Virus record (IMG/VR): IMGVR_UViG_3300009548_000009
Coordinates: 1-53,217 of that record
Direction: 5' to 3' (one strand)
Origin: a virus
Length of the DNA: 53,217 nt
Positions 5,163 through 19,951 of the stretch are shown piece by piece. The notes beneath the pieces were generated by a model. The model saw only the letters and a list, made by a program, of their open reading frames with translations, made no database searches and was not told the DNA's origin. Within the stretch, counting starts at the first letter, position 1. Each line of letters starts with the position of its first letter. Both the position numbers and the translations under genes were made by a program.

Positions 5163-5412
5163 CTTTTCTATGGTTAAGCCAGAATACTGGGCATATCCAA
5201 TATCCTGGGCAACGTTTCTCGCAGTAAGCAACTTCTTTAGGTGAGTGAGTAATTATACAAGAGACTACTAACTTTGCTTGGCTCATCTTAACACTAGGAT
5301 CTATCTGTTCGTGGGTAGGTGTGTTACCGTATAGTGGTGAGCCTATCTTTGCGAGCCGTTTTAAGGCCATGACGTGCTGTAAAAGTATTTGTTGCTCAGA
5401 TTTGCTAGTCAT
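5152..5412 (-). CDS. Fused version of two tiny genes found separately at 6.5 to 6.8 kb
   Basis: This 86-residue protein is composite. Residues 1 to 38 match the 55-residue protein encoded at 6624 to 6791 (both start MTSKSEQQ and share PLYGNTPTHEQID). Residues 43 to 86 match the 43-residue protein at 6496 to 6627 (VVSC, EVAYC, YW, C). In the other locus the two are separate coupled genes; here they are one frame joined at Lys-Met. The C-terminal part has four or five cysteines and may bind metal. Function unknown. Confidence 0.7.
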   Translation of the reverse strand: MTSKSEQQILLQHVMALKRLAKIGSPLYGNTPTHEQIDPSVKMSQAKLVVSCIITHSPKEVAYCEKRCPGYWICPVFWLNHRKDAK

Positions 5413-5534
5413 TTTTCTGCCTTTTTTTCATCCTTCAATGATTCTTTGAATTGTTTCCTATATGCTATGGGGCCTTTCTTATCCGCTTCTTTCACGGTTT
5501 CAAAATTATCTAACCAACACGGTTCCCTATTCAT
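5409..5534 (-). CDS. Tiny hypothetical protein ending in the junction element
   Basis: A 41-residue, charged protein starting MNREPCWLDNFETVKEADKK and ending DEKKAEK. GAGGT lies before its ATG. Its stop overlaps the next ATG (ATGA) within the recurring junction sequence. No family is recognised. Confidence 0.55.
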   Translation of the reverse strand: MNREPCWLDNFETVKEADKKGPIAYRKQFKESLKDEKKAEK

Positions 5535-5558
5535 TTTTCAACCTCTTTTTTATATATA

Positions 5559-6395
5559 TTAATGTTTTAAGTGCATAAACATACACGATAATAGCGCACC
5601 GCTCTTAGTAAATTCATCTATATCCACAAAGCAACTATCCAAACCCAGCTTAGCCGCGATTTCTGTTAAGGTGTTGTTCTTATGTGTGGTTTCGGGTGTT
5701 TCATCGTGAACCATGCCGTTATATATCGTGTCTTCTATTCTAAGAGAGTTAGTTATGCCCTCATAGCAGTCTTCTAAAGCTACGTTTATTACATTAAATT
5801 CCTTATTTAATAATTCCCAATCGTCGTCAGTAATAACTTCCTTACACGCTAGTATAGTATCGCTATCTACTGGAAATATGAAACAATCCACGTGGTAAAG
5901 GTAGTTGTCTAAGGCTTTTAATTTTATTATCTCTGCGTCAAACGCTTTTTCAATCCAGCATAAGGTTTCATATGAGGTAAATAACCCATAACTGGCTATA
6001 TACTGGTTATCGCGTATCCATTTAAGCTCGCCTTCGCCCTCAAAATACGCTGGTGGTGTATAACATGTGTACCCAAGAGTTTCTAAGAAGCCCAAGGCTA
6101 CCCATTCCTCACCGACTCGCCCATCTGCTCTAAAATGACTTATTACTGCGGTTTTATCTAAGTGCGGTAATACACATGCCGGATTTGTGGCATAAGTCTG
6201 ATCCTGTAACCCTGGTGTTGGTGGCAACAGGTACACCAGTGCGTGATTGGTAATTATCATATACAACGCCATAAACTGTTCTAGTGCGGCATCTAGGTTT
6301 ATTTCGCGTTCCTTTTGGGGTAAATCGAGCATCCATATGTTGTTTATTGTAGTGGTGCTCAGGTACCTGGGTGGGCACATAAGTAGTTCTTTCAT
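5559..6395 (-). CDS. Amidinotransferase/DDAH-like guanidino-modifying enzyme (pentein fold)
   Basis: A 278-residue protein with the ordered motifs of the guanidino-modifying enzymes: N-terminal MCPPRYL; NPACVLPH and SHFRADGRVGEE (substrate-binding Arg and Glu, 71 to 97); FEGEGE (117 to 123); YHVDCF with the catalytic His168; and KSGALLSCM with the nucleophile Cys271. Family members hydrolyse or transfer the guanidino group of arginine or methylarginine to give citrulline or related products. Length and motif order fit dimethylarginine-dimethylaminohydrolase-type enzymes. It sits alone as a full metabolic-type gene among tiny accessory genes and starts within an ATGA overlap. Virus-encoded arginine chemistry, or modification of protein arginines, is inference. 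Confidence 0.75.
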   Translation of the reverse strand: MKELLMCPPRYLSTTTINNIWMLDLPQKEREINLDAALEQFMALYMIITNHALVYLLPPTPGLQDQTYATNPACVLPHLDKTAVISHFRADGRVGEEWVALGFLETLGYTCYTPPAYFEGEGELKWIRDNQYIASYGLFTSYETLCWIEKAFDAEIIKLKALDNYLYHVDCFIFPVDSDTILACKEVITDDDWELLNKEFNVINVALEDCYEGITNSLRIEDTIYNGMVHDETPETTHKNNTLTEIAAKLGLDSCFVDIDEFTKSGALLSCMFMHLKH

Positions 6396-6499
6396 ATTTT
6401 GTTTATTCCTACTAACAGGAAATGGTATGGCACGCTGATAATCACCATGCAGCCGAAAAGGAAAAGGAAGAGTATATCTTCAAAAGGATAGTCGGTCAT
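6392..6499 (-). CDS. Tiny single-span membrane protein
   Basis: A 35-residue peptide starting MTDYPFEDILFLFLFGCMVI with one hydrophobic segment. It starts and ends in four-base ATGA overlaps with its neighbours, which supports translation. Function unknown. Confidence 0.55.
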   Translation of the reverse strand: MTDYPFEDILFLFLFGCMVIISVPYHFLLVGINKI

Positions 6500-6627
6500 T
6501 TTTCATTAACTTCTGGATTTGTAACTCTAAACGCTGAGCATGTCCAATACATACTGCAGCACTTTTTACAGTAAGCGACTTCGATCGGGAAATATGTGAT
6601 CGGGCATGATACTACCTGTTTGCTCAT
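6496..6627 (-). CDS. Tiny cysteine-rich protein, paralogue of the C-terminal part of the fused gene at 5.2 kb
   Basis: A 43-residue protein starting MSKQVVSCPITYFPIEVAYC with five cysteines in a C-x11-C-x2-CC-x5-C layout. It matches the second half of the protein at 5152 to 5412. It is linked to both neighbours by ATGA overlaps. Possible metal binding; function unknown. Confidence 0.6.
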   Translation of the reverse strand: MSKQVVSCPITYFPIEVAYCKKCCSMYWTCSAFRVTNPEVNEK

Positions 6628-6791
6628 TTTTTCAGGTCTTTTTGTTTTATATAATCTTCAAGTTCCTTAGCCCAAGCGTCTATCTGTTCGTGGGTAGGTG
6701 TGTTGCCATATAGTGGTGCTCCTATCTTTGCGAGCCGTCTTAGGGCCATGACGCGCTGAAGTAATACCTGCTGCTCAGATTTGCTAGTCAT
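6624..6791 (-). CDS. Tiny protein, paralogue of the N-terminal part of the fused gene at 5.2 kb
   Basis: A 55-residue protein starting MTSKSEQQVLLQRVMALRRL. The DNA is strongly similar to 5290 to 5411, evidence of a local duplication. The proteins diverge after HEQID, where this copy continues with a charged tail. Function unknown. Confidence 0.65.
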   Translation of the reverse strand: MTSKSEQQVLLQRVMALRRLAKIGAPLYGNTPTHEQIDAWAKELEDYIKQKDLKK

Positions 6792-6794
6792 TTT

Positions 6795-6899
6795 TCAGCC
6801 CTCTTTTTCTTCATCTTCCTCGGACCTGTAGAACATACATGCAATGAGGTCAGTGTCTGGGTCTATTCTTGAATAAATACAACATTTCTCACAAGTCAT
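6795..6899 (-). CDS. Tiny cysteine-containing protein
   Basis: A 34-residue protein starting MTCEKCCIYSRIDPDTDLIA, with CxxCC and a fourth Cys, then an acidic tail ending DEEKEG. The junction sequence is present at its end, but one extra G moves the reading frame so that the first TGA is used and the next ATG lies three bases on. This shows that the DNA string, not the peptide, is conserved. Confidence 0.5.
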   Translation of the reverse strand: MTCEKCCIYSRIDPDTDLIACMFYRSEEDEEKEG

Positions 6900-7003
6900 T
6901 TTTCCACCTCTTTTTCTTCTATGATTACAACACCGTTTTCAAATCTCACCCGTTTCGTTCCGTCTGCAAGAATCGCATCAATAACATCCTCGCACGTAGT
7001 CAT
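6896..7003 (-). CDS. Tiny hypothetical protein
   Basis: A 35-residue protein starting MTTCEDVIDAILADGTKRVR and ending EEKEVEK. It has ATGA overlaps on both sides. The predicted strand-rich centre (RVRFENGVVIIEE) is not assigned to a family. Confidence 0.5.
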   Translation of the reverse strand: MTTCEDVIDAILADGTKRVRFENGVVIIEEKEVEK

Positions 7004-7191
7004 TTTCCAGCCTCTTCTTCCTCACACTCACCTTCAAAATAATTTTTATCTTTATCAATCAAACCGAGTTTCTTTAATTTACATTCATCATCCTTAGAAG
7101 CGGGTAAGGTAACGTCAAAGCCTAACTCGTCATCTTCATCACTAAGCCAGCTAATATGGTATTTATTTAGATGTATCTTGTCTTTGGTCAT
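7000..7191 (-). CDS. Small acidic hypothetical protein
   Basis: A 63-residue acidic protein starting MTKDKIHLNKYHISWLSDED and ending EEEEAGK within the junction element. ATGA overlap with the next gene. No family is recognised. Confidence 0.55.
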   Translation of the reverse strand: MTKDKIHLNKYHISWLSDEDDELGFDVTLPASKDDECKLKKLGLIDKDKNYFEGECEEEEAGK

Positions 7192-7194
7192 TTT

Positions 7195-7443
7195 TCAGCC
7201 CCCATGGTCAAACACAAAAGGTTCTCCGTTTATGATGCCACAGCCAAAACCTTTACCTCCCGTTACCATACCAACATTGCCAACCCCACAACTCATGTAA
7301 CATTCGCGGTGATAATGGTAGTATGTGCCGTGCCGGTTAAATGTTGGATAGTTATTTGAGATATCATCGGTAACGTATTCTATATCATCACCTGTGATTA
7401 ATCTACCACAGATTATACAGGAACTTGGTTTAAAAATCATCAT
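7195..7443 (-). CDS. Small zinc-binding protein
   Basis: An 82-residue protein with CIICGRLI near the N-terminus and a His/Cys cluster (HYHRECYMSCG) about 40 residues later, suggesting a treble-clef or zinc ribbon. The C-terminus is Gly-rich. It ends HGG, using the junction element in the frame where TGA precedes the next ATG by three bases. Confidence 0.6.
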   Translation of the reverse strand: MMIFKPSSCIICGRLITGDDIEYVTDDISNNYPTFNRHGTYYHYHRECYMSCGVGNVGMVTGGKGFGCGIINGEPFVFDHGG

Positions 7444-7679
7444 TTTTCAGCCTCTTTTTCTTTTCTTCTTTTCAATATTTCCTCTATTTTGTCAAGTTGT
7501 AATAACCAAAGGCGTACTGACTTTTTATCCCAAGTCATTTTTTCAGCCTCTTTTTCTTGCCTAATTATAAAGTTCGCCATTAGTTTTTCGATGAATATAC
7601 AATCCTCTACATTTCTATTACGCTTACCCGTAAGCCCGTTGAAATCCCCACAATATCTACACCTATTATAGGCAGTCAT
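7440..7679 (-). CDS. Apparent one-base fusion of two tiny genes
   Basis: A 79-residue frame with an internal copy of the junction: residues 41 to 48 read RQEKEAEK and are followed immediately by Met-Thr. Elsewhere the junction has five A residues between GCTG and TG; here there are six, so the stop is lost and the two genes read through. The first part (47 residues) has a CxxC knuckle, the second (32 residues) is a charged helix also ending KEKEAEK. Internal initiation at the second Met, at 7538, remains likely because the Shine-Dalgarno GAGG is intact. Confidence 0.6.
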   Translation of the reverse strand: MTAYNRCRYCGDFNGLTGKRNRNVEDCIFIEKLMANFIIRQEKEAEKMTWDKKSVRLWLLQLDKIEEILKRRKEKEAEK

Positions 7680-7875
7680 TTTTCAGCCTCTTTTCATATT
7701 TGCTACAACTAATATCAATAAAGTTAGGGGGAGACGTTACCCAAAATGTGCCGCCGATGGTGCACTCAATATCCAAATCACCACCCCAATCTGCCGTTAC
7801 GAGCCAAGGACTTTTGCAATTCTTACAGGACTGACAGAGTATTGGTTTATCATCTGTACATTCGTTATCAGTCAT
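7666..7875 (-). CDS. Small cysteine-rich protein
   Basis: A 69-residue protein with CQSCKNCKS and later Cys residues (IECTIGG, ISCSKY), a probable zinc site. It reads through the junction element in the third frame (RLKND), ending 14 bases inside the next gene. No family is recognised. Confidence 0.55.
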   Translation of the reverse strand: MTDNECTDDKPILCQSCKNCKSPWLVTADWGGDLDIECTIGGTFWVTSPPNFIDISCSKYEKRLKNDCL

Positions 7876-8074
7876 TTTTCAGCCTCTCTTTCACCCCGTA
7901 TTCATACGGTTTCCACTCACCCGGCAACATCCCCTTTAGCTTCTGTAAAAAATCACCCCTATCTTCATAACTGATTTGCAGTACTTCTTCTATCGTCGCA
8001 TTGTTAAATGCCATTTCTACTGCGCTGATTATCATGCTATTCAACTTATCTGACCTTGTCTGCTTTTTAGTCAT
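7868..8074 (-). CDS. Small hypothetical protein
   Basis: A 68-residue helical protein starting MTKKQTRSDKLNSMIISAVE and ending KERLKND, again reading the junction element in its third frame. It has no cysteines. Function unknown. Confidence 0.55.
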   Translation of the reverse strand: MTKKQTRSDKLNSMIISAVEMAFNNATIEEVLQISYEDRGDFLQKLKGMLPGEWKPYEYGVKERLKND

Positions 8075-8193
8075 TTTTCAGCCTCTTTTTCCTTCGTTAA
8101 ATCTAATACCTTATTGGTATTTTCACCACACAGCCACGGTTCACTATCAAAACAGCGATACCTGCAAAACGTACAAACTGATTCAAAAGTCAT
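8071..8193 (-). CDS. Tiny cysteine-rich protein
   Basis: A 40-residue protein starting MTFESVCTFCRYRCFDSEPW with CxxC, two further cysteines and the terminal KEKEAEK of the junction. Its start overlaps the DUF998-like gene by 11 bases. Possible zinc knuckle. Confidence 0.55.
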   Translation of the reverse strand: MTFESVCTFCRYRCFDSEPWLCGENTNKVLDLTKEKEAEK

Positions 8194-8779
8194 CTTTTAC
8201 TCTCCTCAAACTCAGCTTCGGATGTAAGTCCATCAGTGCAGCGCCTAATCCAACTTCCCATACAATAAGCGGATAGAACATAACCCGTTCCATGCCGCCT
8301 GTGCCTAACAGACCTGAAAACATCAAAGCGCCGCCTGCAAGCGTGATAATGCCTAATACTATCGAGACGTACGTAAACGGCGGATTAAACCGCTTGTAAA
8401 AGAAAAGCATAACGATTGCGCCAAATACGACTATCAACATTGCAGATGAAATATGCAGATACGGTGCATATTTAAATGGATGCAGCGAAGGGAATACCCC
8501 TACGCCAATTTGACCTAAGCAGGATATACATAAAAGCCCAGTGAATCGGCTGCCGAGCGTTTTACGTACCAGCAGCGCGCCTATTAGTGCGAGTGATCCA
8601 GCGGTTACAAGTGTAATGCCGAAAAGTAGTATCGTTGGCGACAGCGCACCCAGTTCACTGATCGTATCTAAGCGCACCGAATAGGTAGGGTTTAACGCTT
8701 CCATAACAGGTATAAGCAATAGTCCTAAAAATCCGGCCAAGAAAATTAGAGTGCCGCCGAGTTGTTGTTTATCAGTCAT
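8183..8779 (-). CDS. DUF998-type integral membrane protein
   Basis: A 198-residue protein with about six hydrophobic segments. The ISELGA motif after the first segment, and the spacing of TMs with the conserved PSLHPFKYAPYLH loop, fit the DUF998 family. Those are widespread archaeal and bacterial membrane proteins of unknown biochemical role. I place the start at the ATG at 8779 (MTDKQQ), which overlaps the upstream gene by 8 bases and has a G-rich stretch 12 bases before it. It is unusual for a virus and probably host-derived. Confidence 0.7.
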   Translation of the reverse strand: MTDKQQLGGTLIFLAGFLGLLLIPVMEALNPTYSVRLDTISELGALSPTILLFGITLVTAGSLALIGALLVRKTLGSRFTGLLCISCLGQIGVGVFPSLHPFKYAPYLHISSAMLIVVFGAIVMLFFYKRFNPPFTYVSIVLGIITLAGGALMFSGLLGTGGMERVMFYPLIVWEVGLGAALMDLHPKLSLRRVKDDF

Positions 8780-9008
8780 CGCTCGAATAAACCCCCGTTT
8801 CATTTTCGTCGCTTACATCGTGCGGCCATGTTCTAGCGATAACGATGCGCTCTATGCTGCCATCCTTGCGCTTAAAGATGTAACCAATGCGTCCAGGGTA
8901 TAATACATCAAGTTTATCGAAGTCGGTATCGCCTGGATATACTACCCTGAATAACTCCAGCGGCCCCCATCGCTTTGGGTTTACTTCTGCGATTGTATCT
9001 TCTGCCAT
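8772..9008 (-). CDS. Small hypothetical protein
   Basis: A 78-residue soluble protein starting MAEDTIAEVNPKRWGPLELF with predicted beta strands around GRIGYIFKRKDGSIERIVIA. No family is recognised. Coupled to the DUF998 gene by a short overlap. Confidence 0.55.
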   Translation of the reverse strand: MAEDTIAEVNPKRWGPLELFRVVYPGDTDFDKLDVLYPGRIGYIFKRKDGSIERIVIARTWPHDVSDENETGVYSSDD

Positions 9009-9014
9009 TGCCTC

Positions 9015-9263
9015 TCAAATATGTTTAACAGTTTTGCCGTTGCCGAACGTACAACTCACGGCTTTCTTTGTTCGAGATATGAAATGCACGCAGTCGTAAC
9101 AGTTTCTAATTGACCGCGTACCCGTAGTTAATGAGTTCTTACCTGGCCATGGACACGGTACTTTGCCTATATTCTCTGAGGCCCCTGACCATTGGATCGG
9201 AACTTCATGTGTTGCTTCTATCGAGCTCGTGTTAGCCCGCCTCACCTTTGGCTGTGTTACCAT
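9015..9263 (-). CDS. Small cysteine-containing hypothetical protein
   Basis: An 82-residue protein with PCPWPG, CYDCVHF and SCTFG segments that give a CxxC pair plus flanking cysteines. Possible metal binding. Function unknown. Confidence 0.5.
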   Translation of the reverse strand: MVTQPKVRRANTSSIEATHEVPIQWSGASENIGKVPCPWPGKNSLTTGTRSIRNCYDCVHFISRTKKAVSCTFGNGKTVKHI

Positions 9264-9282
9264 CTTTAAACCTTTAAACAGA

Positions 9283-9612
9283 TCACCTCATAACCGTACC
9301 CATCACGATTAAAATTGCTCCTAAGAGCGCCCTAAAGACGCGCCCACCGTCGCGCATTATGTTGTGCACCTGGCCCTGTTCTATGTAGATACTACCTACA
9401 CCGTCCATGATAATCCAAACTCCTAGACCTACTAATAGCGCCCAGCCCCAGGTTCCGAGGCCTAAGAACGCCATGCACATTAGCGTTACGCCGATGTACG
9501 ACCGTATGATGCGACCGCCATCGAAAACCCAACCGTGAGCTCCTTTCGCTGCGATGCTAACTATCCCATCTAAGAAAAGGATGAGCCCTATTAATGCTGC
9601 TAACCAGATCAT
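9283..9612 (-). CDS. Four-helix membrane protein with an internal duplication
   Basis: A 109-residue protein with four hydrophobic segments that divide into two similar halves. The first half has LDGIVSI then VFDGGRIIRSYIGVTL. The second has MDGVGSI then MRDGGRVFRALLGAIL. The repeat suggests gene duplication and a pseudo-twofold fold. A GGGAG-like Shine-Dalgarno precedes the ATG. No family is recognised. Confidence 0.6.
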   Translation of the reverse strand: MIWLAALIGLILFLDGIVSIAAKGAHGWVFDGGRIIRSYIGVTLMCMAFLGLGTWGWALLVGLGVWIIMDGVGSIYIEQGQVHNIMRDGGRVFRALLGAILIVMGTVMR

Positions 9613-9615
9613 TTT

Positions 9616-9732
9616 TTACTCCCAACACATCGGATAGTACCAGTACCACTCCACTAATGAAGGGTCTACAGGGTCACGACGACCAGCTGGAATGGGCCAT
9701 TCTTTCTTTTCTTTTTGTTCTGTGTTAGTCAT
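9616..9732 (-). CDS. Tiny hypothetical protein
   Basis: A 38-residue protein starting MTNTEQKEKKEWPIPAGRRD, ending in a Trp/Tyr-rich tail (VEWYWYYPMCWE). ATGA overlap with the upstream gene, and its end supplies GGGAG for the next gene. Confidence 0.5.
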   Translation of the reverse strand: MTNTEQKEKKEWPIPAGRRDPVDPSLVEWYWYYPMCWE

Positions 9733-9944
9733 TTTTCAGCCTCTTTTTCTATAAGTTCTGAGTCTACGCATTGATAACAATAGTGAATATTTTTACTCCA
9801 TGGTGGGAGCCACAACTCTCCTTTAAATGGGTGGAAATAGTCACCGCGACAAACATCATAGCCAAAACGACAGGATTTCAATGGCTTATGTTGCTTGCTC
9901 CATAATGGTATTTCTATATTAGTACGATTACATCTCCACTTCAT
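9729..9944 (-). CDS. Small zinc-binding protein
   Basis: A 71-residue protein with cysteines at CNRTN, SCRFGYDVC and CYQCVD, and terminal IEKEAEK from the junction element. Probable zinc ribbon; function unknown. Confidence 0.55.
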   Translation of the reverse strand: MKWRCNRTNIEIPLWSKQHKPLKSCRFGYDVCRGDYFHPFKGELWLPPWSKNIHYCYQCVDSELIEKEAEK

Positions 9945-9947
9945 TTT

Positions 9948-10139
9948 TCAGCCCTCTTTTTTACATTTGTTCCATTCTTTTAAAACCGCGTTATTTTCAT
10001 TCTCTAATACCGGAATAGGCACAACGCTCTGGCAATAAGGACAAAGCACGTACGTCTTATCTCCGTCAAATGTCAGGTAGTGCTTTGGTATTATTGGCTT
10101 CCTGCATTTCTGATTTTGGCATTTGATAGGGGCGTTCAC
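9948..10139 (-). CDS. Small zinc-ribbon protein
   Basis: A 63-residue protein with CQNQKCRKPI and CPYCQSV about 25 residues apart, a classic two-knuckle zinc ribbon. The start is GTG. It ends CKKEG, using the junction DNA in the shifted frame. Confidence 0.55.
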   Translation of the reverse strand: MNAPIKCQNQKCRKPIIPKHYLTFDGDKTYVLCPYCQSVVPIPVLENENNAVLKEWNKCKKEG

Positions 10140-10140
10140 C

Positions 10141-10290
10141 TTAGCTTATCTCTTTAAGGATCTCGTCAAGCAATTTATGCCGCTTGTCCAACTCGCAATA
10201 ACTGCACCATAGTATTCCATCAACATAAACAGCATGCCCAGAAACGTGCTCGCCGCATCTATTACAGCGCCCAAATGTTAGTTCAGACAT
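10141..10290 (-). CDS. Tiny zinc-ribbon protein
   Basis: A 49-residue protein starting MSELTFGRCNRCGEHVSGHA with a second knuckle CSYCEL, then a basic helical tail. Overlaps the upstream gene by 8 bases. Similar in plan to the CxxCGREI proteins of this region. Confidence 0.6.
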   Translation of the reverse strand: MSELTFGRCNRCGEHVSGHAVYVDGILWCSYCELDKRHKLLDEILKEIS

Positions 10291-11254: not shown

Positions 11255-12127
11255 CTATTCTTCCTCTGGTAGCGCCATGCTTGCCTCACCTAGTGCTGAT
11301 TCTTCCTCTTCTGGTGATAGTTCGCTTTCTTCTTCTGAGGGCCCCGTCGAATATTCTAAGACGCACATACAATTAATGGTTTCAGAAGCTGGGCCGCTTG
11401 GATCACCAGGATATGCCAAATCGCCGTCTTCAAGTTCAAAAACGTCATCTATTGCGATTTCTGTGCCTTCAATTTCCTCGTGGCTAGGGCGTGGGTTTCC
11501 AGATGTAGTCCACCAAATTTTTGTTGCTCCGTCTGGAAGCAAGTCTTTAGCAGTTTCATTGCTCGCGTAAGAATATGCCCCGTGCGTCTCAGTAGTCGCA
11601 ATTGTACGCGCCCTACTATCTGATACATTATCAAAATCATCTACTAGATCATCGGCTATCTCGTCCTGTGTCTTACCCTCACTTACACCGCTTCTTAACG
11701 TATTCGCTAACCACTCCTGGTCTGTGTCAGTTATCCCATCAATCTTAGTTCCTGCGTGCTGATCCATCCATTCATCTGCATAATCCTGATAATCCTTTTG
11801 AATTATTTCCTCTGTCTTTTTAACTGGATTATGATGTTCTTTTACAAAGTCTTCAGCTTCCTCAGCGGCGTTGAGCCATACTTGCTTGAGTGCTCGAGAC
11901 CACATAGGTTTAAAGTTCACTTTGAAGAATAACGGTAAGCCTTCTATCGCCATTTTTGGTGTCCTTGAACGGACATAGCGTAAAATCAAAGGTTTCTGTT
12001 TGCGATAGACGGCGCGTATGATATTGTAGTTCTGACCGCCGTGAAACGCTCCTTTAGAGTCTTCACGTCCTATGATATTGTTCATGAGGAGTTTATGCCT
12101 GTGGATCAAGTTGGTTTTGCTTGCCAT
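11255..12127 (-). CDS. Phage head morphogenesis protein, Mu gpF / SPP1 gp7-like
   Basis: A 290-residue protein. The C-terminal half carries the family hallmark: SRARTIATTETHGAY, then WWTTSGNPRPSHEEIEGTEI, an acidic loop, and ETINCMCVLEY. Members are minor head proteins that associate with the portal or enter the capsid. The final 30 residues are Glu/Ser-rich. It lies in the accessory region, far from the portal (about 14 kb even on a circular map), whereas the family usually sits next to the portal gene. The N-terminal 35 bases overlap the upstream zinc-protein gene; a start at Met15 would remove the overlap but has no ribosome site. Confidence 0.8.
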   Translation of the reverse strand: MASKTNLIHRHKLLMNNIIGREDSKGAFHGGQNYNIIRAVYRKQKPLILRYVRSRTPKMAIEGLPLFFKVNFKPMWSRALKQVWLNAAEEAEDFVKEHHNPVKKTEEIIQKDYQDYADEWMDQHAGTKIDGITDTDQEWLANTLRSGVSEGKTQDEIADDLVDDFDNVSDSRARTIATTETHGAYSYASNETAKDLLPDGATKIWWTTSGNPRPSHEEIEGTEIAIDDVFELEDGDLAYPGDPSGPASETINCMCVLEYSTGPSEEESELSPEEEESALGEASMALPEEE

Positions 12128-12758: not shown

Positions 12759-12770
12759 TCTGTGCCCCCT

Positions 12771-14119: not shown

Positions 14120-14273
14120 TTCTTGCATAAGAGTTACACAGTACAAGCGTTAGGTCTAAGCTTATTAGCTCCTCGTGCTCGGTAGGAAGGTTAAACCCTC
14201 GTGCTTTGCAGTAGTACGCATTATGTCGTATGACTGCGTTCGAGCAGCTGTTACACGGCGAAGGAAGCTTCAT
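13992..14273 (-). CDS. Small zinc-binding protein with a run-on C-terminus
   Basis: A 93-residue frame. Residues 1 to 52 are protein-like (CNSCSNAV, CKARGF, CNSYA) and resemble the next gene. The last 40 residues merely read the next gene out of frame, an overlap of 128 bases. This suggests that an original stop was lost, or that the ribosome normally shifts or restarts here. The paired CxxC layout argues for a zinc site. Confidence 0.5.
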   Translation of the reverse strand: MKLPSPCNSCSNAVIRHNAYYCKARGFNLPTEHEELISLDLTLVLCNSYARNGQNKTLPHLQAGIYVERPTHPLQGHRRNNKRIYRGMPVLCR

Positions 14274-14416
14274 TTTTCACCCTCTTTTATATTCGTATCC
14301 TGGTGCATCCATGCCTCTCTACAGGCTGAATGGATAGTGTACGGCATGGCATCCCTTACCCCACTATAATGTGGTTCGCGTGATTTTATCTCCCTGCCGC
14401 ATTGTTCGCACAGCAT
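14270..14416 (-). CDS. Tiny zinc protein (CxxCGREI family)
   Basis: A 48-residue protein starting MLCEQCGREIKSREPHYSGV, with a later lone CREAW. It ends IKEGEK in the junction element with an ATGA overlap. AAGAGG lies before the start. It resembles the 44-residue protein at 14922 to 15056. Confidence 0.6.
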   Translation of the reverse strand: MLCEQCGREIKSREPHYSGVRDAMPYTIHSACREAWMHQDTNIKEGEK

Positions 14417-14419
14417 GTT

Positions 14420-14620: not shown

Positions 14621-14623
14621 TCT

Positions 14624-14911
14624 TCAACCGTAGCCAACATCATACTGTAATGGTTTTTGATCGCTTTCTTTCATCTCATGGAGTTTCATTTGAATCCTCA
14701 GAGCAAGTTCAAGCCGCTGTAAATACTCATGATAATCATCGCGCATTTTAGTAACTTCTGGATCGCTGTCAGGTATGCCTCTTCTTTGTAAGATATTCAA
14801 CAATGTAGCAAGCCCTGTGACTATTGATTCGCACGACATTACCATAAAGGCCGCGATATCTGCTCCGTTGAGTGTGATCTCAATCTCTTTAAGTTCTAGT
14901 TCCTCAACCAT
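14624..14911 (-). CDS. Small helical hypothetical protein
   Basis: A 95-residue acidic protein starting MVEELELKEIEITLNGADIA. Two or three long helices are predicted. No family is recognised. TGAGG, from the end of the preceding gene, serves as ribosome site. Confidence 0.5.
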   Translation of the reverse strand: MVEELELKEIEITLNGADIAAFMVMSCESIVTGLATLLNILQRRGIPDSDPEVTKMRDDYHEYLQRLELALRIQMKLHEMKESDQKPLQYDVGYG

Positions 14912-14921
14912 TTGATAGGCC

Positions 14922-15056
14922 TCATTTATTTGGTGATCTTAGATAGTTCGCTCTACAAGCGAGGTGCAACTGGTACTGCTCACCGTCTCGCATCCCAATA
15001 AGAATAGACTCGCGTTCCTTTATCTCCCTGCCGCAGTAGGTGCAATTTTCGGTCAT
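14922..15056 (-). CDS. Tiny zinc protein (CxxCGREI family)
   Basis: A 44-residue protein starting MTENCTYCGREIKERESILI with a later HLACRANY. Paralogue of the protein at 14270 to 14416: same CGREIK-x-RE core and spacing to the third Cys. Confidence 0.6.
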   Translation of the reverse strand: MTENCTYCGREIKERESILIGMRDGEQYQLHLACRANYLRSPNK

Positions 15057-15066
15057 TTTTCACTCT

Positions 15067-15255
15067 TCACGCGTACCAAAAGTCCCCCTCATATTTTCTA
15101 ATAAGTTTCATTCCTTCCGTGTACCCTGCTTCTTCTAGCACATCAAAACATAAATCATCTATCTTACTGTGAGCTTCTTCGTTATCAAAGATTCCAAGTT
15201 CCCCATTATAACTTAGGGCTTCCTTAACTTTCTTTTCAAATTCTTCTGGTGTCAT
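15067..15255 (-). CDS. Small acidic hypothetical protein
   Basis: A 62-residue helical, acidic protein starting MTPEEFEKKVKEALSYNGEL. No family is recognised. Its ATG overlaps the stop of the 30-residue gene above it. Confidence 0.5.
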   Translation of the reverse strand: MTPEEFEKKVKEALSYNGELGIFDNEEAHSKIDDLCFDVLEEAGYTEGMKLIRKYEGDFWYA

Positions 15256-15344
15256 TTTTCAATCTCCCATAAAATGTGCATATTCTTAGGCATGCCAAAT
15301 AGCAGCCACATCATGGTCCGGTAGTGCTTTTTTAAGGTGGTCAT
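15252..15344 (-). CDS. Very small hydrophobic/basic peptide
   Basis: A 30-residue peptide starting MTTLKKHYRTMMWLLFGMPK. The start and stop overlap neighbours within junction-like sequences, which is the only evidence that it is translated. Confidence 0.35.
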   Translation of the reverse strand: MTTLKKHYRTMMWLLFGMPKNMHILWEIEK

Positions 15345-15571
15345 TTTTCATTCCCGATTAGCTGCCCAAGCGCAGTAATATCTTTTATTTCTGTATTTGG
15401 GATGGTTAACCAACTGTTGTCACATGAGGGGCATGCAGTAACCACCAACCCTTCCTTGTCAAATAAACATTCTGGTATAATCTCAAGTTGTTCTTTCTCG
15501 CAAAACGGACACGTTATAAATACAGATGTTGGTTCTGCTTTAGATTTTGGTTTTGGTGATGCTTTAACCAT
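15341..15571 (-). CDS. Small zinc-ribbon protein
   Basis: A 76-residue protein with a basic N-terminus, CPFCEKEQ and CPSCDNSW about 25 residues apart, and a short acidic tail ending GNEK. Canonical zinc-ribbon spacing. Function unknown. Confidence 0.6.
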   Translation of the reverse strand: MVKASPKPKSKAEPTSVFITCPFCEKEQLEIIPECLFDKEGLVVTACPSCDNSWLTIPNTEIKDITALGQLIGNEK

Positions 15572-15574
15572 TTT

Positions 15575-16219
15575 TCAGCCACCTGATTTAAACTGCGTAG
15601 TGCTCGGAAGAAACTGGACAATACGAGGCCACTCGTCTCCCCGCTGGTTCTTTACGTTCTTCACCATCACTCTCACATGCTGGCCCAGGAGGTCATCAGT
15701 AGTCAGCGACTCAGGATACCCACCTAGTGTAACGCTAACTAAATCACGCAGTATTGAGCCTTCATTATAGTTTAGTGACATGCGCCTGGTTATCTCGCCA
15801 AAAGAGGTTTCAAAAGAGATGTATAAAAACGTCCTGACTCCAGGGCTGCCGTCTGGTGTTTTATTGTAATAGTCTGGATCTTCGCTTGTCCATGTTTTCC
15901 TTATTACAGCTTCGTAAACGTCTTCTTTTACTGCACTAAGATGCTTCTTGCGGATTATTTCTATTGTTTCATGCTTTGGGCCGCGTTCTTCTGTTGAGCT
16001 TGCAGAATTTGGAGTATCAACATTTACTACTTTATATGGCCTTTCATCTGCCCTTTCTGCGTTAACTTCTGAGGGAGTCATATAACGCGGTTCTTTTTTG
16101 GGTTTAGTTACTTTAAATGCCTTTGCTGCTTCATCCTCTTCAGACTCACTGGGGATAAATTCTTCCTCTTTTCTGGCCTGTTCAGCTTTCCATTCTTCTT
16201 CTGTTTTTAGTTCTTTCAT
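15575..16219 (-). CDS. Possible OB-fold single-strand DNA-binding-like protein
   Basis: A 214-residue protein. The first 95 residues are Glu/Lys-rich and disordered. The rest is strand-rich, with YEAVIRKTWT, RTFLYISFETSFGEITRR and LLGQHVRVMVKNVKN, which resembles phage proteins of the DUF669 / SSB-like OB-fold type. The ATG at 16219 is favoured by GAGGC in the junction element. If correct it would be the only recognisable replication-type protein here. The assignment is weak. Confidence 0.45.
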   Translation of the reverse strand: MKELKTEEEWKAEQARKEEEFIPSESEEDEAAKAFKVTKPKKEPRYMTPSEVNAERADERPYKVVNVDTPNSASSTEERGPKHETIEIIRKKHLSAVKEDVYEAVIRKTWTSEDPDYYNKTPDGSPGVRTFLYISFETSFGEITRRMSLNYNEGSILRDLVSVTLGGYPESLTTDDLLGQHVRVMVKNVKNQRGDEWPRIVQFLPSTTQFKSGG

Positions 16220-16344
16220 TTTTCTGCCTCTTTCGTAATTGAGACTATTCCCCATTCTATACTTCCGTCTTCTCTTTTTATTCGTTTGGCTTCTGCACGA
16301 ATTCCCTTTGTCACAATAGTTACTTTAGTTGGATGATCTGTCAT
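16216..16344 (-). CDS. Tiny hypothetical protein
   Basis: A 42-residue protein starting MTDHPTKVTIVTKGIRAEAK with strands predicted (IEWGIVSIT), ending ITKEAEK from the junction element. It overlaps the next ATG. Confidence 0.5.
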   Translation of the reverse strand: MTDHPTKVTIVTKGIRAEAKRIKREDGSIEWGIVSITKEAEK

Positions 16345-16347
16345 TTT

Positions 16348-16530
16348 TCACCCCAATATCACCTTTTTTAAGATCTCTTCAACCATCGCCGATACTGGCA
16401 GCATTTCATCGTGCGCCATTTTCTCTACTGTTTCGCGTATATCAGGTCCGAGCCAGATGTAGAGCTTTCTGTATCCTTCCTCTGCTCTTCTCCTTTCCCA
16501 TAACATCTTTTTACTTTGATATTTTACCAT
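16348..16530 (-). CDS. Ribbon-helix-helix-like protein
   Basis: A 60-residue basic protein with a strand (YRKLYIWLG) followed by two helices (PDIRETVEKMAHDE and VSAMVEEILKKVI), the RHH layout. Such proteins dimerise and bind operators. Targets unknown. Confidence 0.55.
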   Translation of the reverse strand: MVKYQSKKMLWERRRAEEGYRKLYIWLGPDIRETVEKMAHDEMLPVSAMVEEILKKVILG

Positions 16531-16540
16531 CTTACTAGTT

Positions 16541-16690
16541 TCAGATTTTAATGTTGAGTCTTAGTTTATAGACTTCCTCAGCTAACGCGCAGAGGGCCTC
16601 TGCGAGCAGGAGCACGTCGCGACTGTACAATTCTTTACATTCATCTTCTTGTATTTCGCTCAGTCTGTGGTCAAGTTCCAGGAATCCCAA
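16541..16690 (-). CDS. Tiny helical protein with TTG start
   Basis: A 49-residue helical protein, second residue Gly, with core SEIQEDECKELYSRDVLLLA. Start TTG at 16690 has AGGAG eight bases upstream, inside the end of the preceding gene. No family is recognised. Confidence 0.5.
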   Translation of the reverse strand: MGFLELDHRLSEIQEDECKELYSRDVLLLAEALCALAEEVYKLRLNIKI

Positions 16691-16705
16691 CGTTATCACT
16701 CCTTA

Positions 16706-16822
16706 TTACAACTTTACGTTCAAGCGTCGTGCAAGCATATCAAAACCCTTAAAGATCAAGAGCCCTTCAACCAAGACTCCGACGCCTATGCAAAGTTCAA
16801 TCACAATCAGTTCGATTATCAT
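16706..16822 (-). CDS. Tiny single-span membrane protein
   Basis: A 38-residue peptide starting MIIELIVIELCIGVGVLVEG with one hydrophobic segment and a basic tail. The ATG lies one base after the stop of the HNH gene. Confidence 0.45.
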   Translation of the reverse strand: MIIELIVIELCIGVGVLVEGLLIFKGFDMLARRLNVKL

Positions 16823-16823
16823 A

Positions 16824-17180
16824 TCAGATCAGCTGTTTCCATTTCGGTCTATTTTTAATCTTATTGTTCCAAATTCTTGCATCTTCAACTACATCAGGAT
16901 TATAGCTTACCCATCTACATAAATGGCCGAAAGACCAGTGATGCGTACGGCAAAGCGTTATCAGATTATCCTCATCCAATTCTTTTTCCGGATACCACTG
17001 GAACGGCAACACATGATGAACAGCGCTGTTATTGCTACGAGCTATAGCGCCACATACTGCACAAGCGGGGTGTTTTTTCCTGAACCGTCTGCTTACTCTA
17101 GACCAGTTAGGACTCCTAGCGTATGTAGAGAGAAAAAGCCTATCTCTGCGTATATCACGTAACGTAACACTTGCGCTCAT
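16824..17180 (-). CDS. HNH endonuclease
   Basis: A 118-residue protein with a standard compact HNH domain: CAVCGAIARSN, AVHHVLPFQWYP (catalytic His-His), ELDEDNLITLCRTHHWSFGHL. The DEDNL Asn and final His-His complete the motif. This small form is typical of phage HNH nucleases near packaging genes and of homing nucleases. Here it lies in the accessory block, overlapping the regulator gene by 26 bases. Confidence 0.85.
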   Translation of the reverse strand: MSASVTLRDIRRDRLFLSTYARSPNWSRVSRRFRKKHPACAVCGAIARSNNSAVHHVLPFQWYPEKELDEDNLITLCRTHHWSFGHLCRWVSYNPDVVEDARIWNNKIKNRPKWKQLI

Positions 17181-17415
17181 ACCACACTTTCTCTGTTCTG
17201 ACGTATCCTTCCTTTTCTAATGTTCTGATCCGATGATACAGCATAGGTTGTTTTAATCCGCTGAACCGACCGAGCACAAGACACATCCAAATCATTTTTA
17301 CGTTACTGCCTGGCCGGTCGCGGAGGCAGTCAAGTATTCCCTGATCCAAAAGATCAAGTTCGCTGCTAGAGTCGGTTCGCCATTCACGGTACTTGGATGT
17401 CTGTCTCTTGAGCAA
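17155..17415 (-). CDS. Archaeal-type winged-helix regulator
   Basis: An 86-residue protein with a winged helix: LDQGILDCLRDRPGSNVKMI, a recognition helix around QPMLYHRIRTLEKEGYV, then a short wing. The start is TTG at 17415 with GAGGAGG six bases before it. A regulator of early genes is likely; targets unknown. Confidence 0.65.
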   Translation of the reverse strand: MLKRQTSKYREWRTDSSSELDLLDQGILDCLRDRPGSNVKMIWMCLVLGRFSGLKQPMLYHRIRTLEKEGYVRTEKVWYERKCYVT

Positions 17416-17593
17416 TATGCGCCTCCTCGTTAACCTGGATTAATCCTTCAGTATGCCGTTTTTCTTGGACTGATCTCCGTATATCCTCAATCTGCCTTAG
17501 GTGCTCTTTAACACTGTCTTCTAGCTGTGAGATTACTTCCCAGATAGAATTGAATTCTTTGGTAATTTGCTCATGTGTTAAATCATGGTTCAT
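17384..17593 (-). CDS. Small coiled-coil protein
   Basis: A 69-residue protein starting MNHDLTHEQITKEFNSIWEV, with heptads through the first 45 residues. It overlaps the regulator gene by 32 bases. A degenerate copy of the TTAACCTAGGTTAA palindrome lies inside it (17430 to 17443) and may be coincidental. Confidence 0.5.
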   Translation of the reverse strand: MNHDLTHEQITKEFNSIWEVISQLEDSVKEHLRQIEDIRRSVQEKRHTEGLIQVNEEAHIAQETDIQVP

Positions 17594-17766
17594 CGTACGC
17601 CTACCTTGATGATTAACGAAAGACCGTATAGGATTATGACCGTTGCAATGCCGTTTAAAAACAGGAACCAGTACAGCTTAGCAACTGTAACCCATGTTTC
17701 ACGAAAAAGAGTATGCCGCCTATTAATTTTAGTTGTGGTTGTGATATTAGCAGTATTAGCAGCCAT
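17590..17766 (-). CDS. Small single-span membrane protein
   Basis: A 58-residue protein starting MAANTANITTTTKINRRHTL, with one membrane segment (LYWFLFLNGIATVIILYG). GGGGGAT lies before the ATG at 17766, and its end overlaps the coiled-coil gene (ATGA). It may form a unit with that gene. Function unknown. Confidence 0.55.
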   Translation of the reverse strand: MAANTANITTTTKINRRHTLFRETWVTVAKLYWFLFLNGIATVIILYGLSLIIKVGVR

Positions 17767-17899
17767 CTTTATCCCCCCATTGATTACAGGAATGATCTTT
17801 CTCAAAATAAGCACGCTGCGGGATACACCAGCGGTGCGGAGCGTAGCTGTCTGAGTTACGCACGTTTATGCAGGTGTCGCACCTTCTTTCCTGAGACAT
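17756..17899 (-). CDS. Tiny cysteine-rich protein
   Basis: A 47-residue protein starting MSQERRCDTCINVRNSDSYA with CDTC and three later cysteines. The ATG follows the stop of the gene above with no spacer, and its 3' end provides the G-rich ribosome site of the next gene. Confidence 0.55.
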   Translation of the reverse strand: MSQERRCDTCINVRNSDSYAPHRWCIPQRAYFEKDHSCNQWGDKDGC

Positions 17900-18052
17900 T
17901 CAGATGCACCCCCATTCATAAGAAAGCACTGGTCTTATAAAAACGTTTATGCGCTGGCGCTGGTCACACTGGTGGCATGTGTGCATAAAAGCCTGCTCCT
18001 CTTCACCTAGTGAAGCGCCGCAATATTTACAGTGCTCGCCGTCGATGATCAT
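17900..18052 (-). CDS. Tiny zinc-ribbon protein
   Basis: A 50-residue protein starting MIIDGEHCKYCGASLGEEEQ with a second knuckle CHQCDQ 17 residues later. ATGA overlap with the pentapeptide gene in the junction element. Confidence 0.6.
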   Translation of the reverse strand: MIIDGEHCKYCGASLGEEEQAFMHTCHQCDQRQRINVFIRPVLSYEWGCI

Positions 18053-18738
18053 TTTTCAGCCTCTTTTTCTTCTAATCCAACTGCTTTGTCTTTGTTTAGC
18101 GCACCCTGAAGGTTAGCACCCCAAAGGTTAGCACCCCAAAGGTCAGCACCCCAAAGGTTAGCACTCTGAAGGTTAGCACTCTGAAGGTTAGCACCCCAAA
18201 GGTTAGCACCCCGAAGGTTAGCACGCTGAAGGTCAGCACCCTGAAGGTCAGCACCCCGAAGGTTAGCACGCTGAAGGTCAGCATCCCGAAGGTCAGCACC
18301 CTGAAGGTCAGCATCCCGAAGGTCAGCACCCCAAAGGTTAGTACCCTGAAGGTTAGCATCCTGAAGGTCAGCACCCCAAAGGTCAGCACCCCAAAGGTTA
18401 GCACTCTGTAACATCTGTGGTGTAAACCACGATTCCAAATCGGCGATGTTGAAGATACTACGCGCTACTGCTGCGAATGCTTCTTTACAAGCTCGGAGTT
18501 TATAGCCACGTTTGATTACCCACCCATCTGGGTAATACTTATCAGCTACGTCGTGTACAATATCATCTCGTATCTGGTCTGGAAACAACACTTCAAATTT
18601 AATATGCGGTCTTTTTCCATAACGTAGGTCATCATCAAGCGTTGCTAAAAGTTCATCATGCGAACACACTTTCGGTTGTGCGTAAACTTTCCATTCTCCA
18701 TCTATCTTTTCGGTTATTACCGCTAAACCTTGGCACAT
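18049..18738 (-). CDS. Pentapeptide-repeat protein
   Basis: A 229-residue protein. Residues 1 to 110 form a novel N-terminal domain (MCQGLAVITEKIDGEWKVYA and onward). Residues 112 to about 211 are some 20 consecutive A-(D/N)-L-x-x pentapeptides, which fold as a right-handed quadrilateral beta helix. Known members include DNA-mimic gyrase inhibitors and other protein-binding scaffolds. The repeat units vary only at two positions, using mostly WG, QG, RG, QS and QD, so the array has recently expanded. It ends EEKEAEK in the junction element. A role as a mimic or inhibitor is inference. Confidence 0.85.
   Translation of the reverse strand: MCQGLAVITEKIDGEWKVYAQPKVCSHDELLATLDDDLRYGKRPHIKFEVLFPDQIRDDIVHDVADKYYPDGWVIKRGYKLRACKEAFAAVARSIFNIADLESWFTPQMLQSANLWGADLWGADLQDANLQGTNLWGADLRDADLQGADLRDADLQRANLRGADLQGADLQRANLRGANLWGANLQSANLQSANLWGADLWGANLWGANLQGALNKDKAVGLEEKEAEK
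18100..18410 (-). repeat. 15-bp tandem DNA repeats coding pentapeptides
   Basis: About 20 copies of a 15-bp unit (plus strand close to AAGGTTAGCACCCCA) lie in tandem within the pentapeptide-repeat gene. The high DNA identity explains why other frames also stay open here. Confidence 0.9.
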
Positions 18739-18739
18739 C

Positions 18740-18880
18740 TCAGTCCAACCCCTCTATAAGTTGTTCAACTACAAGGTCGGGAGTTACGTGTCGGGCGTTG
18801 GCATAGTCAAAGAGAGAAAGTAATATCCCCTCATCCATAACCATGCTGATCTTAGAAAAGTAGCCACTCTTTTTAACCAT
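18740..18880 (-). CDS. Tiny possible RHH protein
   Basis: A 46-residue protein starting MVKKSGYFSKISMVMDEGIL. A strand (KISMVMDE) precedes two short helices, compatible with RHH, but it is at the lower size limit. ATG directly follows the TAA of the gene above. Confidence 0.45.
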   Translation of the reverse strand: MVKKSGYFSKISMVMDEGILLSLFDYANARHVTPDLVVEQLIEGLD

Positions 18881-19300
18881 TTAGTCCACTTCCGTTGATA
18901 ATAGCTTTAGAAGCTCCACGCGGATTTTCAAGTCTCCACGTCTCTCGTGCTCGCAGACGATCTCGTTTTTCATCTTCTGCACTACCTTCAGCATGTCCCT
19001 GTGCGCGTCAAGTGCAGCCTCGTAACCTTCAACGTCGCGAAGCATGATTTCACTAGCTGCTTTTTGGCTGTCAAGGTTCGGATTAATAAGCTTGCCTGTG
19101 ATCTTGCTGACCTCAGTTGCCGCCTTAACGAACGCCTGAGCCTTCGCTAAGTTGAGTTGATCCATGACTCCTGCAGCTTCGTATTCGGTTTCTGCGATTG
19201 CGTCACTCAACGACTTTATGTGGTTCCGCGAGTTGCGGAGATCCCGAAGAATCTGTTCCGCTGTCGCCTCGACGGATGACTTAAGAATTGGTTCTTGCAT
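18881..19300 (-). CDS. Coiled-coil hypothetical protein
   Basis: A 139-residue, almost wholly helical protein starting MQEPILKSSVEATAEQILRD. GAGGTGA precedes the ATG. It is the first gene after a promoter bracketed by two perfect 14-bp palindromes. No family is recognised. Confidence 0.6.
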   Translation of the reverse strand: MQEPILKSSVEATAEQILRDLRNSRNHIKSLSDAIAETEYEAAGVMDQLNLAKAQAFVKAATEVSKITGKLINPNLDSQKAASEIMLRDVEGYEAALDAHRDMLKVVQKMKNEIVCEHERRGDLKIRVELLKLLSTEVD

Positions 19301-19330
19301 TTTTAGTCACCTCTTTTGTTAACCTTGGTA

Positions 19331-19344
19331 TTAACCTAGGTTAA
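19331..19344 (-). promoter_or_regulatory. Perfect palindrome TTAACCTAGGTTAA (copy 1)
   Basis: A 14-bp perfect palindrome between the inferred transcription start and the ATG of the 139-residue gene. An identical copy lies 126 bp away on the other side of the promoter. It is a likely operator or ParB-type binding site. Confidence 0.6.
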
Positions 19345-19395
19345 CTTTTAGGCTGGATACACTCTCATGTACCCATTTACCTTAATGCATCCTTT

Positions 19396-19410
19396 CAATA
19401 AAAAGCTTTC
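19396..19410 (-). promoter_or_regulatory. Candidate promoter (AAGCTTTTTATTG)
   Basis: On the minus strand GAAAGCTTTTTATTG resembles a B-recognition/TATA element. The parB upstream region carries nearly the same string (AAGCTTTTATTGG). The shared sequence supports a common promoter type. Confidence 0.5.
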
Positions 19411-19456
19411 TATTTACCTCTAATAACAAAAATAGTACAAAAAAAGAAAGCGAGTG

Positions 19457-19470
19457 TTAACCTAGGTTAA
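19457..19470 (-). promoter_or_regulatory. Perfect palindrome TTAACCTAGGTTAA (copy 2)
   Basis: Identical to copy 1 at 19331, six bases past the stop of the 154-residue gene. The two copies bracket the promoter in the 175-base non-coding gap, an arrangement typical of looping repressors or of a partition site. Confidence 0.6.
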
Positions 19471-19475
19471 TTAGA

Positions 19476-19940
19476 TTAACGGCGTTTATGCATCGCCTTT
19501 TCGTATTCACAAAATTGCTCTTCCGTAACATTGTGGCCATCAACGGTATATTTGAATTCACCTTTACCTACTGATAACACCGTCTCTCGCGGAATCGTAT
19601 TATACTCCTCACAAAGGTACGTATCCACCTTTCCTTTAACTTGTCGTGCAATCGAATCAATATCTTGCCGCCGTTCCTTCTCTCGTAACTTGTGTAGACG
19701 TTGCCATTCTCTATGTTTCTTCTCATCTCTGCGTTTTTGTAACGTAGATTCGAGGCCTAACTGTTCTTCAATACCTTCAATGGCGCTTTCAGCAATCTTT
19801 TGTGCGTCTTCGTTACCAGGAACAAACCATGCATCATCATATGTTTCTTCATAATAACCTTCTCGCCATTCGGTTTCGTCATACTCTTTAAGGAGTCTAT
19901 CACGTAACGCGGTTAACTGCTCACGCTCTGTCTGTTTCAT
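19476..19940 (-). CDS. Charged helical hypothetical protein
   Basis: A 154-residue protein starting MKQTEREQLTALRDRLLKEY, rich in Glu, Lys and Arg, mostly helical with a short strand-rich C-terminus (GEFKYTVDGHNVTEEQF). It lies 11 bases after parB and is probably co-transcribed with it. GGAGATG precedes its start. Function unknown; a partner in partition or regulation is possible. Confidence 0.55.
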   Translation of the reverse strand: MKQTEREQLTALRDRLLKEYDETEWREGYYEETYDDAWFVPGNEDAQKIAESAIEGIEEQLGLESTLQKRRDEKKHREWQRLHKLREKERRQDIDSIARQVKGKVDTYLCEEYNTIPRETVLSVGKGEFKYTVDGHNVTEEQFCEYEKAMHKRR

Positions 19941-19951
19941 TTTTCATCTCC

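What the first reader, a model, noticed from the sequence alone, without database searches (positions are those of the whole stretch)
5409..19945. Array of about 50 tiny genes joined by one mobile-looking stop/ribosome-site/start element
Seen: more than twenty junctions share GAGGCTGAAAAATGAC or close variants, well beyond a bare Shine-Dalgarno. The upstream genes read the element in three different frames (EAEK stop, EG stop, RLKND), so the nucleotide string is what is conserved. Many of the genes are 30 to 80 codons with CxxC knuckles. Known: ATGA overlaps couple translation. Inference: the element is a cassette boundary through which small genes are gained, lost, duplicated and shuffled in frame-independent fashion, giving a polycistron of small effectors, possibly anti-defence proteins.
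Basis: partly seen in the sequence, partly recalled or inferred. Interest (0 to 1): 0.8.

Follow-up and report, generated by a model that had tools for sequence, protein, structure and literature searches.

The report
Stop-and-restart linker between swappable virus genes
A virus, probably of methane-making microbes, strings dozens of tiny genes together with one short repeated DNA linker that stops one protein and starts the next, and comparison with sister viruses shows genes being added, lost, duplicated and exchanged exactly at that linker.

Summary
Of 50 gene starts in the array, 21 match GAGGCTGAAAA within 3 of 11 bases, against 1 of 29 structural-gene starts. The core TGAAAAATGA occurs 17 times on the coding strand at 5-20 kb, 0 times at 21-53 kb, 0 on the other strand, and 7 times in 1.15 Mb of cellular loci. 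Upstream genes read it in all three frames.

In two independent close pairs, nearly every linker junction adjoins a gene difference: 19/20 and 7/7-8/8, against 12/33 and 17-19/42-44 for other junctions. One relative has a 165-bp exact duplication of a single cassette with both ends inside the linker. Cassettes sit at different places in more distant relatives.

It is a stop/Shine-Dalgarno/start adaptor with TGA stops in two frames (all three in a sister lineage), so neighbours can change without regard to frame; it probably works by termination-reinitiation. Whether it actively promotes recombination, or only makes insertions tolerable, is unresolved. Anti-defence function has no support. Closest known: start-associated sequences of cluster K mycobacteriophages and phage boundary sequences.

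The parts
5152..5412 (-). gene W50: duplicate of the two-gene unit 6496-6791 in which the two genes are fused into one; starts at an element
   Evidence: 83% and 59% aa identity to W45 and W46; absent from close relative L026
5409..5423 (-). linker copy AAGGCAGAAAAATGA (start of 5152-5412)
   Evidence: 2 mismatches
5531..5545 (-). linker copy GAGGTTGAAAAATGA (start of 5409-5534)
6788..6802 (-). linker copy AGGGCTGAAAAATGA; downstream end of the seven-gene block absent from L026
6795..8074 (-). seven linker-joined small genes (W38-W44), absent as a block from relative L026, which carries one linker copy at the corresponding junction
   Evidence: blastn blocks; homology switch inside GCTGAAAAATGACTA
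6896..6910 (-). linker copy GAGGTGGAAAAATGA
7000..7014 (-). linker copy GAGGCTGGAAAATGA
7188..7202 (-). linker copy GGGGCTGAAAAATGA; upstream gene ends GG* at the C-TGA stop (gap +3)
7440..7454 (-). linker copy GAGGCTGAAAAATGA (exact)
7440..7679 (-). gene W40: two small genes fused in frame through a linker with one extra A (internal peptide EKEAEKMT, linker at 7536-7550)
7666..7875 (-). gene W39; its homologue in G3 (22-kb relative) lies elsewhere and ends EKEAEK*, whereas W39 reads the linker as KRLKND (one A fewer)
7676..7690 (-). linker copy, exact; read as RLKND by the upstream gene
7872..7886 (-). linker copy, exact; read as RLKND by the upstream gene
8071..8085 (-). linker copy, exact; upstream end of the seven-gene block absent from L026
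8071..8193 (-). gene W37 (MTFESVC..), a relocated cassette: in G3 it lies between homologues of W19 and W20, with linkers on both sides
9616..9944 (-). two linker-joined genes (W31, W32) present in L030 and absent from L026
9729..9743 (-). linker copy, exact
9941..9955 (-). linker copy AGGGCTGAAAAATGA
14270..14284 (-). linker copy GAGGGTGAAAAATGA; L026 carries two extra linker-joined genes exactly here
15053..15266 (-). gene W16 and its two flanking linkers (15053-15067, 15252-15266); gene absent from L026, homology switches at ATGAC
15341..15582 (-). gene W14 and its flanking linkers (15341-15355, 15568-15582); gene absent from L026
16216..16355 (-). gene W12 and its flanking linkers; the slot holds a different gene set in each of three close relatives
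18049..18063 (-). linker copy, exact, after the pentapeptide-repeat gene
19937..19951 (-). weak linker copy GGAGATGAAAAATGA after the ParB-like gene

Best explanation
The repeat is a stop/Shine-Dalgarno/start adaptor. It packs TGA stop codons in two reading frames (C-TGA-AAA-ATG in the start codon's own frame, and A-TGA in the next; a sister lineage adds TGAGG and so closes all three), a GAGG ribosome-binding site and an ATG. Any small gene that carries it at an end can be joined to any other and still be cleanly terminated and restarted. Shown by sequence: the adaptor anatomy, its enrichment, its use in three frames, and the fact that gene gains, losses, duplications and relocations have their ends in it. 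Inferred: that ribosomes reinitiate across it as at archaeal and bacterial ATGA pairs; that the copies supply short homologies for recombination or slippage; and that the host is a methanogenic archaeon. The result is a long coupled polycistron with a backbone of core genes in conserved order, into which accessory small genes are slotted.
For: Motif enrichment over structural starts, the opposite strand and cellular DNA. Three frames. Locally unneeded stop codons are mostly retained: among the AAAAATGA-type starts of the window, 16 have both TGA-AAA-ATG and ATGA and 1 has all three stops; L150/L151 have 6 exact TGAGGTTTGAAAAATGA. W vs L026: 19/20 linker junctions broken vs 12/33 others, p=1.6e-5; counting only event boundaries, p=0.001. 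Independent pair L150/L151: 7/7 and 8/8 broken vs 19/44 and 17/42, with unrelated gene sets between the same flanks. 165-bp exact single-cassette duplication running from GGTTTGAAAAATGA to GGTTTGAAAAATGA. Homology switches inside the element. Relocated homologues of W37, W39, W36, W33. Accessory genes carry it more than core genes, 17/32 vs 4/22, p=0.0095. Coupling at stop/start overlaps is experimentally established in an archaeon and E. coli (PMC6728339), with gaps of about 20 nt almost abolishing it (PMC10666635); the element mostly gives -4, +3, -8 or -14.
Against: No expression data. Per-junction counts in multi-gene blocks are not independent; at event level about half of the W/L026 differences (HNH nucleases, a methylase, longer genes) do not use the element. 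Similarity of the two linkers at exchanged sites exceeds random pairs only modestly (191 of 20,000 random sets reach it). The 165-bp duplication is close to short-read length and lies in one metagenome contig, so a misassembly cannot be excluded. Gene calls come from a simple script, not a curated annotation.
Confidence: 0.7

Rival explanations
1. Purely translational signal: the element is simply this virus group's best reinitiation site. Genes come and go by ordinary illegitimate recombination, and only events that leave a clean stop/start survive selection, so the element marks survivors and plays no part in recombination.
For: The conserved block ends at the start codon region. Several turnover events occur without it. 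Microhomology excess at exchanged pairs is modest.
Against: Structural genes do not use it (no core copy at 21-53 kb). Backbone genes keep ordinary, diverse RBS in the same region. Exchanged ends fall inside shared sequence at the linkers. Unneeded stop codons are retained.
Confidence: 0.3
2. Protein- or RNA-binding site (regulatory start-associated sequence) that controls a regulon of accessory genes.
For: Resembles in position the cluster K start-associated sequences, whose function is unknown (PMC3203893). Strict orientation and restriction to non-structural genes.
Against: Conserved positions coincide with SD, stop and start functions. Other lineages of the group change the SD part (GAGGCTG, GAGGCCG, GAGGTTTG) but keep the GAAAAATGA end, which fits stop/start function more than a protein site.
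Confidence: 0.07
3. Site-specific cassette system (integron-like) with a recombinase acting on the element.
For: Neat single-cassette duplication and relocation.
Against: No stable hairpin at three sampled junctions. No recombinase among the proteins scanned. Breakpoints vary within the element rather than at one base.
Confidence: 0.03
4. Generic host ribosome-binding site, nothing special.
For: Contains a standard SD and an ATGA overlap.
Against: 1 of 29 structural starts match. 7 copies of the core in 1.15 Mb of cellular loci. Eight cellular genomes sampled have 0-3 near matches each.
Confidence: 0.02

Closest known systems
Start-associated sequences (SAS/ESAS) of cluster K mycobacteriophages (PMC3203893); a similar 26-bp start repeat in Citrobacter phage Mordin (PMC4611695)
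   Same: Short asymmetric repeat holding the SD, just upstream of ATG, one orientation, confined to non-structural genes, shared by unrelated genes
   Different: SAS is GGGATAGGAGCCC, sits mostly before genes with more than 50-bp upstream gaps, about half carry inverted repeats, and no link to gene turnover was reported in the passages read; here the stop codons are built in, there is no gap, and gene changes have their ends in the repeat
Conserved boundary sequences proposed to drive lambdoid phage mosaicism (cited in PMC3029335; original papers not read)
   Same: Short shared sequences between genes at which homologous recombination could swap neighbours
   Different: Many near-identical copies in one operon, working as stop/start linkers read in several frames, with single-gene cassettes
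Promoter-stem-loop (PeSL) mobile regulatory cassettes of T4-like phages (Arbiol 2010; Comeau 2014, cited in PMC4503421; not held, not read)
   Same: Repeated control element linked to shuffling of small accessory genes
   Different: PeSL are promoter plus stem-loop; this element is translational and without a stable fold
Termination-reinitiation at overlapping gene pairs (PMC6728339, PMC10666635)
   Same: ATGA overlap and SD inside the upstream gene, distances of -4
   Different: Ordinary pairs are not described as sharing one nucleotide string across dozens of unrelated genes
Integron gene cassettes (from general knowledge)
   Same: Array of small promoterless genes gained and lost as units
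   Different: No folded attC-like site seen and no integron integrase found; cassettes are linked by a translation signal

Membership tests
Cluster K start-associated sequences | 13-bp GGGATAGGAGCCC sequence | tested here: not met
   Element is GAGGCTGAAAAATGA(C); SAS sequence from PMC3203893
Cluster K start-associated sequences | One orientation, immediately upstream of start codons, non-structural genes only | tested here: met
   All 24 matches on the coding strand; core 17 vs 0 in the structural part
Cluster K start-associated sequences | Mostly before genes with more than 50-bp upstream gap | tested here: not met
   Gaps of -4, +3, -8, -14 predominate
Termination-reinitiation (ATGA) coupled pairs | Overlapping stop/start or very short distance, with SD in the upstream gene | tested here: met
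Termination-reinitiation (ATGA) coupled pairs | Downstream translation depends on upstream translation | not testable with these tools
   Needs reporter or ribosome profiling experiments
Boundary-sequence mosaicism | Breakpoints between different neighbours fall in the shared sequence | tested here: met
Boundary-sequence mosaicism | Exchange driven by homology of the boundary sequence | tested here: inconclusive
   Modest excess of similarity, driven by two events
PeSL cassettes | Stem-loop next to a promoter | tested here: not met
   Weak folds only, -0.1 to -4.0 kcal/mol over 50 nt at three junctions; promoter part not tested
Integron cassettes | Folded attC recombination site | tested here: not met
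   Same folds
Integron cassettes | Integron tyrosine integrase | tested here: inconclusive
   None among proteins scanned, but not every gene was scanned and the record may be a fragment

The most novel reading that the evidence does not exclude
A virus group has evolved a dedicated frame-independent cassette adaptor: a repeated stop-SD-start string, closing two or all three reading frames, that both couples translation and provides the crossover site, so that single small genes are captured, duplicated and traded between viruses as plug-in parts without an integrase.
Probability: 0.4. Interest if true: 0.8.

Novelty: new variant of a known kind. Interest (0 to 1): 0.64.

Why it matters
[quoted passage not shown] Here the boundary is repeated, well preserved, present in several related lineages with lineage-specific spelling, and closes several reading frames, so a passive and an active role can be tested directly. 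It also gives a handle for finding accessory small genes in viruses of uncultured hosts: they lie between adaptor copies.

Tried and rejected
Megablast of the array against known phage genomes found nothing. A search with the portal protein in cellular genomes found nothing; a TerL profile did. Host assignment: the TerL halves best match a methanogen MAG (64% and 61%), but the other genes tested did not match those loci, so it is a lean only. The isolates with the nearest TerL are Thermus and Meiothermus phages. The 18-base adaptor was not found in the seven genomes of that archaeal class held. Anti-defence: no PHROGs family and only weak PADLOC hits for 43 array proteins. Searches for the 18-19-base string in viral contigs also hit contigs with single copies, treated as chance or ordinary RBS. 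The L030 comparison adds few changes (W12/W13 slot and W25; the W34-W44 rows there are an artefact of the L030 contig end). Worry considered: that interior junctions of multi-gene blocks drive the 'broken junction' counts; a boundaries-only count still gives p=0.001. Structure prediction was not used.
Full report
What is there. The window is a 53-kb virus record with its genes almost entirely on the minus strand. It looks like a tailed virus: TerL, portal, tape measure and tail genes were identified. Between a ParB-like gene (19952-21001) and the TerL region lie 48 called genes (W1-W49, numbered in transcription order), median 69 aa, 36 of them 100 aa or shorter, with 34 of 47 junctions overlapping or spaced by 5 nt or less.

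The motif. GAGGCTGAAAAATGA with up to 3 mismatches occurs 24 times, against 2.1 expected, always on the coding strand. 21 of 50 starts fit GAGGCTGAAAA within 3 of 11, against 1 of 29 structural starts. Pairwise similarity is raised at -15..-8 (0.41 vs 0.34) and -7..-1 (0.49 vs 0.35), never reached in 2,000 label permutations, and is not raised further out. The core TGAAAAATGA is enriched in all eight viral sequences tested, nearly always at called starts, and is rare in cellular loci (7 in 1.15 Mb).

Anatomy. TGA-AAA-ATG puts a stop in the start codon's own frame three bases before it, and ATGA puts one in the next frame. The remaining frame is read as RLKND into the next gene. In the sister lineage L150/L151 the spelling is TGAGGTTTGAAAAATGA, found six times exactly, with TGA at -13, -6 and +1, that is, in all three frames. 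Upstream genes in the window end in EAEK* and similar (gap -4), EG*/G* (gap +3) or RLKND.. (overlap 8-14). Most copies keep the stop they do not need locally.

Gene turnover at the element, first pair. Relative L026 (about 90% identical) differs from the window by blocks whose ends fall in linker copies: seven genes at 6795-8074, W14, W16, W31-32, W49-50, two extra genes at 14270, and a slot at W12 that is different in three viruses. 19 of 20 linker junctions are not conserved, against 12 of 33 others (p=1.6e-5); boundaries only, p=0.001. Other differences (HNH nucleases, a methylase-like gene, longer genes) do not use linkers.

Second, independent pair. L150 and L151 (mostly 85-95% identical in shared blocks) have their own array upstream of ParB with their own spelling. 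Between conserved flanking genes (95% and 96% aa identical) one has five and the other nine genes with no counterparts. 7/7 and 8/8 linker junctions are broken, against 19/44 and 17/42 (p=0.006 and 0.002). In L151 one cassette is present twice as a 165-bp exact repeat that begins and ends inside the linker, with different neighbours on both sides. A misassembly of a repeat of about read length cannot be excluded.

More distant relatives. In G3 (22-kb contig) homologues of W37, W39, W33, W36 and L026_5 lie at other places in the array, and W3/W4 are swapped. Alignments show homology beginning or ending at ATGAC or the linker (W37, W39, W36). W39 and its G3 homologue differ by one A before the linker, changing the end from EKEAEK* to KRLKNDCL* while the linker stays intact. 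L134 shares the backbone order W0, 2, 6, 7, 9, 11, 19, 21, 22, 26, 29, 45, 52, 53 without the linker at those starts. In the window, linkers precede 17 of 32 accessory and 4 of 22 core genes (p=0.0095). W50 is a fused duplicate of W45-W46, and W40 is two genes fused through a linker with an extra A.

How it works. Inference: the ribosome finishing one small gene terminates beside the SD and restarts at the ATG. Such coupling is established for overlapping pairs in an archaeon and E. coli (PMC6728339), and it nearly collapses at about 20-nt gaps (PMC10666635); nearly all linker geometries here are short. Because the adaptor supplies stop, SD and start itself, a gene joined at it works largely regardless of the neighbour's frame. 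Copies also supply short stretches of homology; whether that drives recombination is open.

Function of the genes. CxxC motifs are three to four times commoner than in shuffled proteins. Recognised: pentapeptide repeats, an ArsR-like HTH and a DDAH-like enzyme, DUF998. There is no evidence for anti-defence.

Host. TerL halves match methanogen MAGs best; other genes do not confirm this.

Verdict. Observation confirmed, cassette-boundary reading largely supported, anti-defence unsupported, active recombination undecided. It works like start-associated and boundary sequences of phages but is not a member of the cluster K SAS family.

Noticed in passing
2814-3647 and 52095-52778: TerL appears to be encoded in two pieces (ATPase part and a second part whose homologues lie just downstream of TerL in relatives) at opposite ends of the record; in relative G4 the two pieces are adjacent genes overlapping by 4 nt. 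If the genome is circular they are a few kb apart, with an HNH-like gene and others between.
   Followed up: partly
5559-6395: Protein matching the DDAH (dimethylargininase) Pfam family inside the array, unusual for a virus; also in L026 at 90%.
   Followed up: no
18049-18738: Pentapeptide-repeat protein whose repeat region gives a long overlapping ORF in another frame; the repeats align between relatives in many registers.
   Followed up: no
7536-7550: Linker with six A instead of five turns a stop/start into an in-frame fusion (EKEAEKMT); slippage on the A run could give both fused and separate products.
   Followed up: no
11255-12127: A head-morphogenesis gene sits in the middle of the accessory array, next to an HNH gene, and is part of the conserved backbone.
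   Followed up: partly
L147:3694-4504: A further viral contig, otherwise little related, with five consecutive small genes joined by copies of the same linker.
   Followed up: partly
132-938: Papain-like cysteine peptidase (by eye) shared by several relatives, next to a conserved neighbour (935-1981); possible lysis or cell-wall enzyme.
   Followed up: no
L150:2760-4366 and L151:4090-5709: Second array site upstream of ParB with a lineage-specific linker that closes all three frames.
   Followed up: yes
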